DNA of 52,983 nt from Frankiaceae bacterium (lineage in GTDB: Bacteria; Actinomycetota; Actinomycetes; JAFAQI01). The position numbers and the translations under genes are program-made. This document shows, piece by piece, positions 34,770-35,073 of this stretch. The stretch covers positions 1 through 52,983 of the forward strand of contig JAFAZI010000130.1 of NCBI GenBank assembly GCA_019239875.1, read 5' to 3'. The notes under the pieces are model-generated. The model was not told the DNA's origin and did no database searches. It saw only the letters and a program-made list of their open reading frames with translations. How positions within the stretch are numbered: the stretch's first letter is position 1; each line of letters begins with the position of its first letter.

Positions 34770-34793
34770 CCCAGCAGTGGGTTGGCTGGCGGG
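34770..34793 (+). terminator. Short hairpin after the NlpC/P60 stop
   Basis: Directly after the TGA at 34765-34767, TTCCC and CCAGC (34769-34775) can pair with GCTGG and GGGAA further on, or a four-base CCCA/TGGG stem can form at 34770-34781. Likely the terminator of the hydrolase gene. There is no U-tract. Confidence 0.35.
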
Positions 34794-34800
34794 AAATGGA

Positions 34801-34885
34801 AACCCCCGGGCAGTCACCTCGGCGCCAGCAAGCTGACGGGAGGTCGCCGACTGGACTGGTCGGCCGCCCGGGGGTTCGGTGACTG
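34801..34885 (-). repeat. Two interleaved inverted repeats (pseudoknot-capable or mutually exclusive)
   Basis: Bases 34801-34811 are the perfect complement of 34866-34876 (11 pairs, mostly C-G). Bases 34811-34818 are the perfect complement of 34878-34885 (8 pairs). The order is A, B, A', B', so the stems cannot nest; they can form an H-type pseudoknot. A smaller CCGAC/GTCGG stem lies between them. On the minus strand the A arm is followed by a T-rich stretch, as in a terminator, which favours a minus-strand transcript. Confidence 0.6.
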
Positions 34886-34961
34886 TCGGAGATTCGCCAG
34901 CGCCGCGCACGGCGGAGCGTGCCACGGCAGGAGGTTCTCACCTCGAGTCCGTTGACGGCGT

Positions 34962-35000
34962 CTAGCGGACCGCCACCTCACAAGTCCAACGTGTACTCAA
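34962..35000 (-). CDS. Candidate 12-residue micro-ORF with a very strong Shine-Dalgarno sequence
   Basis: On the minus strand a TTG at 35000 starts the frame LSTRWTCEVAVR followed by TAG (34962-34964). AAAGGAGGT (35011-35019) lies ten bases upstream, part of a 16-base stretch (35006-35021) that matches the complement of the 16S rRNA 3' tail at 14 positions, with one of the two mismatches able to wobble. Downstream the transcript would contain two CCTCC stretches able to mask the ribosome site, then the interleaved inverted repeats. No same-strand gene follows for more than 1.7 kb, so this would be a self-contained small gene or regulatory RNA. Expression is unproved. Confidence 0.4.
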   Translation of the reverse strand: MSTRWTCEVAVR

Positions 35001-35005
35001 AGCGT

Positions 35006-35021
35006 GGACCACCTCCTTTCC
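35006..35021 (-). promoter_or_regulatory. Extended Shine-Dalgarno-like element
   Basis: Read on the minus strand this is a 16-base match, 14 identities, to the full complement of the 16S rRNA tail. Read on the plus strand it imitates the 16S tail itself. Ordinary ribosome sites in this window are four to six bases long, so this length is exceptional. Confidence 0.6.
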
Positions 35022-35073
35022 GTGTAACGCAAGGTTAAGCCCATACGGTGTACATGCCGAGGGAATTAACAGT

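What the first reader, a model, noticed from the sequence alone, without database searches (positions are those of the whole stretch)
34790..35021. Minus-strand micro-ORF with an exceptionally long Shine-Dalgarno match and a structured tail
A TTG-started frame of 12 codons (34962-35000) follows a 16-base near-complement of the 16S rRNA tail (35006-35021). Downstream on the same strand are two CCTCC stretches (34935-34930 and 34844-34838) that could pair with the ribosome site, then two interleaved inverted repeats and a T-rich run. No gene lies downstream on that strand for 1.7 kb, so this is either a tiny gene, a ribosome-binding RNA or a self-contained attenuator. None of the listed protein genes explains it.
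Basis: partly seen in the sequence, partly recalled or inferred. Interest (0 to 1): 0.68.

Follow-up and report, generated by a model that had tools for sequence, protein, structure and literature searches.

The report
Translated "noncoding" RNA grips ribosomes
The stretch is a copy of a known but functionally unexplained actinobacterial small RNA (Rfam Ms_IGR-5), and comparison across several hundred genomes shows that this supposedly noncoding RNA always carries a near-perfect ribosome docking sequence and a tiny conserved reading frame folded into a pseudoknot, so it probably works by being translated.

Summary
Window 34794-35025 (minus) is a full-length, single-copy member of Rfam RF02471, Ms_IGR-5, "Actinobacteria sRNA" (88.9 bits, cut-off 45). 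In the papers I could search, that family is described only as a small RNA, with ribosome footprints reported in two mycobacteria and no function.

New here:
(1) The SD pairs with the 16S tail over 16/16 bases, counting G-U, in 183 of 212 relatives and 15/16 in the rest.
(2) A 10-19-codon frame follows it and always ends in a stop (TAG/TGA/TAA, never TGG). It is open in 212/212 relatives and in 38/38 loci found later, while the other two frames are mostly blocked. Its length varies by whole codons, but the peptide is not conserved.
(3) Covarying helices P1, P2 and P3, and a pseudoknot between the frame and the terminator loop, bury the frame in structure.
(4) A conserved promoter with an A-tract starts transcription 10 nt before the SD.
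(5) The family reaches Acidobacteriota; in Bryobacterales it lies next to rpmE (bL31).

The CCTCC stretches are not conserved, and neighbours change by clade, so a cis-attenuator is unlikely. Most likely it is a stand-alone RNA whose folding is controlled by ribosomes loading, translating 12 codons and pausing at the stop on a second internal SD. Its molecular output is unknown.

The parts
34794..35025 (-). whole RNA, member of Rfam RF02471 Ms_IGR-5
   Evidence: cmscan 88.9 bits, model 1-184 complete, gathering 45; only copy in the genome
35032..35037 (-). probable -10 box TAACCT; inferred transcription start at 35025
   Evidence: aligned to the conserved TANNNT of 211 upstream regions; the -35 box of this copy is weak and the generic promoter scan finds none
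35065..35070 (-). AT-rich stretch at the place of the conserved A-tract (UP-element position, about -45 to -40 from the start)
   Evidence: A-tract peak at -55 to -50 from the SD in relatives; poorly matched here
35006..35021 (-). SD1, 16-base complement of the 16S rRNA tail (14 WC + 2 GU)
   Evidence: tail sequence verified in 8 genomes
34962..35000 (-). micro-ORF, TTG start, 12 codons, TAG stop
   Evidence: frame and stop kept in all 212 relatives and in 38 further loci
34974..34979 (-). SD2, GAGGTG inside the frame, 15 nt before the stop
   Evidence: 15 nt in 208/212 loci, 14 nt in 4
35022..35024 (-). P1 5' strand CAC (pairs with 34979-34981)
   Evidence: helix 1: 97% of cells paired, 3 of 4 pairs with changes on both sides
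34979..34981 (-). P1 3' strand GTG, inside the frame
34984..34987 (-). GGAC, pseudoknot strand inside the frame (pairs with 34853-34856)
   Evidence: 55/60 Watson-Crick paired versus shuffled mean 47.9, maximum 53 of 5000
34969..34977 (-). P2 5' strand GGTGGCGGT, overlaps SD2
   Evidence: helix 2, 92% paired
34878..34886 (-). P2 3' strand ACAGTCACC
34962..34967 (-). P3 5' strand CGCTAG, contains the stop codon
   Evidence: helix 3, 74% paired
34895..34900 (-). P3 3' strand CTGGCG
34801..34876 (-). P4, GC-rich terminator-like hairpin with inner stem
   Evidence: helices 4 and 5, 87-95% paired; poor T run
34853..34856 (-). GTCC in the apical loop of P4, pseudoknot partner of GGAC

Best explanation
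It is a stand-alone RNA gene of the Ms_IGR-5 family that works by being translated. Transcription from its own promoter starts at about 35025. A 30S subunit docks on SD1, which is complementary to the whole 16S tail, and starts at the near-cognate TTG. It translates 12 codons and reaches the TAG. At that point the internal SD2 lies about 8 nt upstream of the P-site codon, a spacing that favours pairing with the 16S tail and therefore a pause or retention at the stop codon. From codon 5 to the stop, nearly every codon of the frame also belongs to the pseudoknot, P1, P2 or P3, so translation and folding exclude each other. The RNA therefore switches between a ribosome-occupied open form and a compact pseudoknotted form according to ribosome engagement, and acts in trans. 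Shown here: family membership, conservation of SD1, frame and stop, the covarying structure, the conserved promoter and the lack of a conserved downstream gene. Inferred: the pause, the switch, and an output in translation or ribosome physiology. The molecular target is not known.
For: Rfam match over the full length. The frame is open with its stop in 212/212 loci, while the two other frames are blocked in 124 and 189; stops are TAG 170, TGA 28, TAA 14, TGG 0, although TGG was allowed by the scan pattern. In 38 loci found later by a model that knows nothing of codons, the frame is open in 38, blocked in 22 and 29 for the other frames, and has an NTG start in 35. Clades in which the distance SD2-stop is 14 instead of 15 have shifted the upstream part so that the frame stays open, which changes the peptide from ...EV... 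to ...GG...; so translation is kept, not the peptide. SD1 pairs 16/16 with the 16S tail in 183/212, and apart from 29 mismatches, almost all at the two outermost 5' positions, every departure is a G-U wobble. P1-P4 covary: score 0.315 versus 0.134 shuffled (0/500) and at most 0.083 when slid. The pseudoknot covaries: GGAU/AUCC, CGAC/GUCG. Promoter with -10, -35 and A-tract conserved, start at the first A of ACAC. Flanking genes differ by clade. Ribosome footprints on Ms_IGR-5 homologues in M. abscessus and M. smegmatis (PMC4974804); sRNA transcripts reported in S. lividans, S. avermitilis and M. smegmatis (PMC8079986, PMC8780764, PMC10454040).
Against: No experiment shows translation to the stop, a pause there, or a phenotype. 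PMC4974804 itself warns that noncoding RNAs often carry ribosome reads. GAGGTG is also the P2 strand, so its conservation does not by itself prove an SD2 role. REV/EVA recurs in Acidobacteriota peptides, so a peptide role cannot be dismissed. The promoter of this copy is a poor match. Shuffle controls ignore relatedness.
Confidence: 0.5

Rival explanations
1. The product is a functional micropeptide (dual-function RNA): the REV/EVA-containing peptide acts on the ribosome or another target, and the RNA structure only tunes its synthesis.
For...TREVA.R*...PREVTGC* and MSSGS..TREVVDC* recur in two phyla; synonymous changes occur at the Thr, Arg and Ser codons.
Against: Codons 2-5 are free. The residue before EV changes to S, G, E, Y or P whenever P1 changes by compensatory mutation. 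Frame-shifted clades encode unrelated ...SGGGSS* peptides with the same RNA.
Confidence: 0.15
2. A 16S-tail decoy: the RNA binds free 30S subunits through SD1 and holds them, and elongation through the frame is not needed.
For: 16/16 pairing with the 16S tail in most relatives, and in 206/212 a wobble instead of the perfect pair at one position (GGTGG was fixed in the scan pattern for 120 of them); an A-tract (UP-like) promoter.
Against: A pure decoy needs no stop codon and no maintained frame, yet both are kept without exception.
Confidence: 0.15
3. A conventional noncoding antisense sRNA; the frame is incidental.
For: Annotated as an sRNA by Rfam and in three transcriptome papers.
Against: Frame, start and stop are under selection; nearly all conserved single strands are SD, frame or pseudoknot, leaving no obvious seed.
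Confidence: 0.1
4. A transcription attenuator or leader that senses translation for a downstream gene.
For: Terminator-like P4 follows P2; in 15 of 17 Bryobacterales loci the next gene is rpmE.
Against: In the window the downstream gene is convergent; among 92 actinobacterial loci the next gene is convergent in 45, same strand in 28 and absent within 600 nt in 19 (rough gene calls), and neighbours differ by clade. In Bryobacterales an extended -10 (TGCTATACT) lies between terminator and rpmE in most aligned loci.
Confidence: 0.05

Closest known systems
Rfam RF02471, Ms_IGR-5
   Same: Whole RNA matches end to end above the curated cut-off; same SD, frame region, stems and terminator hairpin in the consensus.
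   Different: Rfam and the papers found treat it as a noncoding sRNA of Actinobacteria. The conserved frame, the 16S complementarity, the pseudoknot, the promoter and the spread to Acidobacteriota were not described in the papers I could search. The long P3 loop with CCTCC is special to this copy.
Dual-function sRNAs (SgrS/SgrT, RNAIII/hld, SR1; from general knowledge)
   Same: A regulatory RNA with a short translated frame.
   Different: Here the frame is threaded through the conserved RNA fold, and the peptide sequence is not what is conserved; no antisense target is known.
Leader-peptide attenuators and regulatory uORFs (e.g. topAI uORF, PMC12121999)
   Same: A short frame whose translation competes with RNA structures.
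   Different: No downstream gene is controlled; the RNA is stand-alone with its own promoter and terminator.
tmRNA (from general knowledge)
   Same: Stable RNA with pseudoknot and a roughly 10-codon frame ending in a stop within a helix.
   Different: No tRNA-like domain and no tmRNA match in the window; initiates by its own SD.

Membership tests
Rfam RF02471 Ms_IGR-5 | score above the curated gathering cut-off over the full model | tested here: met
   88.9 bits against 45, positions 1-184 of 184
Rfam RF02471 Ms_IGR-5 | consensus helices present in this copy | tested here: met
   P1 3 bp, P2 8 of 9 pairs, P3 6 pairs, P4; this copy is row 1 of the alignment counted
Rfam RF02471 Ms_IGR-5 | expressed as a small RNA | not testable with these tools
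   shown by others for relatives (PMC8079986, PMC8780764, PMC10454040), not for this genome
Dual-function sRNA | conserved translatable frame | tested here: met
Dual-function sRNA | independent antisense target activity | not tested
   no target prediction was run
Leader-peptide attenuator | conserved co-directional gene downstream | tested here: not met
   convergent NlpC/P60 gene in the window; neighbours vary by clade
tmRNA | match to the tmRNA covariance model, tRNA-like ends | tested here: not met
   only RF02471 reaches threshold in the whole window

The most novel reading that the evidence does not exclude
A widespread class of stand-alone RNA whose function is to be translated: a ribosome-engagement sensor or ribosome-holding RNA in Actinomycetota and Acidobacteriota, in which a 16-bp match to the 16S tail loads a ribosome, a tiny peptide-independent frame moves it to a stop codon with a second SD, and this opens or closes a pseudoknotted RNA that controls translation globally.
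Probability: 0.3. Interest if true: 0.9.

Novelty: new member of a known kind. Interest (0 to 1): 0.6.

Why it matters
A single-copy RNA kept across two phyla, including mycobacteria and Streptomyces, is filed as a noncoding sRNA of unknown function. The comparison predicts that it is translated and that translation, not the peptide, is the selected property. That turns an orphan family into a set of simple tests (start codon, frame, stop, pseudoknot swaps) and suggests a link to ribosome supply that no known bacterial RNA class describes.

Tried and rejected
CCTCC stretches as conserved anti-SD elements: not enriched and absent in close relatives, although the lowest-energy fold of this one sequence uses the first of them to mask SD1. 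Conserved peptide LSTRWTCEVAVR: only a few relatives share WTCEVA. Attenuator for a downstream gene: rejected on context, and rpmE in Bryobacterales mostly has its own -10 box. Generic promoter and terminator scans find nothing here; the promoter was seen only by aligning relatives. The 16S tail of this genome could not be read, because its 16S gene end was not found in the assembly; eight relatives were used instead. Exact-pattern search of Acidobacteriota was too strict. No target search was run, because the conserved unpaired bases are accounted for by SD, frame and pseudoknot. Literature searches found no paper describing the frame; the original report of Ms_IGR-5 is not in the library.

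Full report
What it is. The minus-strand stretch 34794-35025 matches Rfam RF02471, Ms_IGR-5, "Actinobacteria sRNA", end to end with 88.9 bits against a cut-off of 45; it is the only Rfam match in the window and the only copy in the genome. Papers that mention the family report transcripts in Streptomyces lividans and S. avermitilis (PMC8079986, PMC8780764) and in M. smegmatis (PMC10454040), and ribosome footprints in M. abscessus and M. smegmatis (PMC4974804). The last paper cautions that noncoding RNAs can carry ribosome reads. No paper found describes a reading frame or a function.

Relatives. RF02471 found 70 of 396 actinobacterial genomes and 40 of 60 nearer relatives, one copy each. A model built here from 42 actinobacterial sequences, R1, found 144 of the same 396, almost always one copy. 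A DNA-pattern scan of named genomes gave 120 loci in Actinomycetes, Acidimicrobiia and Solirubrobacteraceae, but also in Bryobacterales, which are Acidobacteriota. A targeted search found 17 of 200 genomes of that order, and R1 found 25 of 199 Acidobacteriota genomes, down to E 1.5e-12. RF02471 itself passes its cut-off in two of them.

Ribosome-binding site. The 16S tail GGATCACCTCCTTTCT was verified in eight genomes. SD1 pairs with it over 16/16 positions (WC or GU) in 183 of 212 relatives and 15/16 in 29; the mismatches are almost all at the two outermost 5' positions, and every other departure is a G-U wobble. For 120 of the 212 loci the search pattern fixed GGAGGTGGTCCA, so the free positions and the 92 model-derived loci carry this evidence. 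In the window it is the only 16-mer with 16/16.

Frame. In all 212 loci a frame runs from the region just after SD1 to a stop, with no earlier stop in that frame, while the two other frames are blocked in 124 and 189 loci. Stops are TAG 170, TGA 28, TAA 14; TGG, which the pattern allowed, never occurs. Start codons are TTG 90, ATG 65, GTG 20, and CTG, ATT, ATC and others in the remaining 37. The SD-start spacer varies, while the coding part changes by whole codons, 10 to 15 in these loci and up to 19 in Acidobacteriota. As an out-of-sample test I fetched 40 loci newly found by R1, a model without codon knowledge: 38 parse, the frame is open in 38/38, the other frames are blocked in 22 and 29, and 35 have an NTG start. 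In clades where SD2 is 14 rather than 15 nt from the stop, the upstream part has shifted to compensate, so the peptide reads SGGGSS-like instead of TREVA-like. Residues under P1 change freely when P1 covaries. So translation is conserved but the peptide largely is not.

Structure. On a 60-sequence alignment, P1-P4 form standard pairs in 87.4% of cells, with a covariation score of 0.315 against 0.134 after shuffling (0/500) and at most 0.083 when slid. P1 is 97% paired, with AU, CG, GC and GU at one pair. GGAC in the frame pairs with GUCC in the P4 loop. Natural double changes (GGAU/AUCC; CGAC/GUCG) support this pseudoknot, while the 5' GGUCC, the other possible partner, does not change. Counted automatically, 55 of 60 pair by Watson-Crick against a shuffled mean of 47.9 and a maximum of 53 in 5000. 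Shuffles ignore relatedness, so these are strong but not formal tests.

Promoter and context. Aligning 211 upstream regions shows TANNNT at -22 to -17, TTG at -46 and an A-tract at -55 to -50 from SD1, and a start at the first A of ACAC, so transcription begins 10 nt before SD1. The A-tract is where a UP element would lie; the copy in the window matches poorly. Flanking genes change by clade: a citrate-synthase-like gene and pdxH in streptomycetes, a nitrobindin-like gene in mycobacteria, ligA in Acidimicrobiia, sugar transferase and NlpC/P60 in the window's family (names from my reading of the proteins). The downstream gene is more often convergent than co-directional (45 against 28 of 92). 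In Bryobacterales 15 of 17 loci lie just upstream of rpmE, with a separate -10 box for rpmE in most aligned loci.

How it most likely works. Shown: a stand-alone RNA with conserved promoter, near-perfect SD, frame with stop, and a fold in which codon 5 to the stop belong to pseudoknot, P1, P2 or P3. Inferred: a ribosome loads through SD1, translates, and is held at the stop because SD2 then has about 8 nt to the P-site codon; occupancy opens the fold, absence of ribosomes closes it; the RNA thereby reports or titrates ribosome engagement. The output is not known. Rivals are a functional peptide, a 30S decoy, an antisense sRNA and an attenuator; the first two remain open.

Novelty. The locus is a new member of a known family. 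What is new is the coding evidence, the complete 16S complementarity, the pseudoknot, the promoter and the spread to a second phylum; I did not see these in the papers I could search, which exclude most subscription journals.

Noticed in passing
L227-L243 (Bryobacterales), SD near locus position 1500: Acidobacterial version with frames such as MSSGSKHKREVVDC*, own TTGACA promoter and terminator, directly upstream of rpmE (bL31) in 15 of 17 loci; the 5' strand pairs after the frame instead of inside it (CACTGA/TCAGTG, CACGGAA/TTCCGTG). Twelve of these loci gave no Ms_IGR-5 match in Rfam even at E 1.
   Followed up: partly
212 relatives, base 13 of SD1 (window 35009): 206 of 212 loci have G, a wobble with the 16S U, where A would pair perfectly (fixed by the scan pattern in 120 of them); perhaps avoids a perfect duplex or serves an alternative GGUCC/GGAC pairing.
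   Followed up: no
window 34930-34935: The lowest-energy fold of this copy pairs ACCTCC with SD1, masking it; not conserved in close relatives.
   Followed up: yes
L056, L061, L063, L064, L066 and others: CTG, ATT and ATC as apparent start codons at the normal place in Acidimicrobiia and related clades, i.e. near-cognate initiation.
   Followed up: no
G224: The only genome with two R1 matches; its contamination is 7%, so it may be a mixture.
   Followed up: no
G225, G257, G268, G316, G343 (family f9): Complete genomes of one family in the same class without any match by either model; the RNA seems lost there.
   Followed up: no
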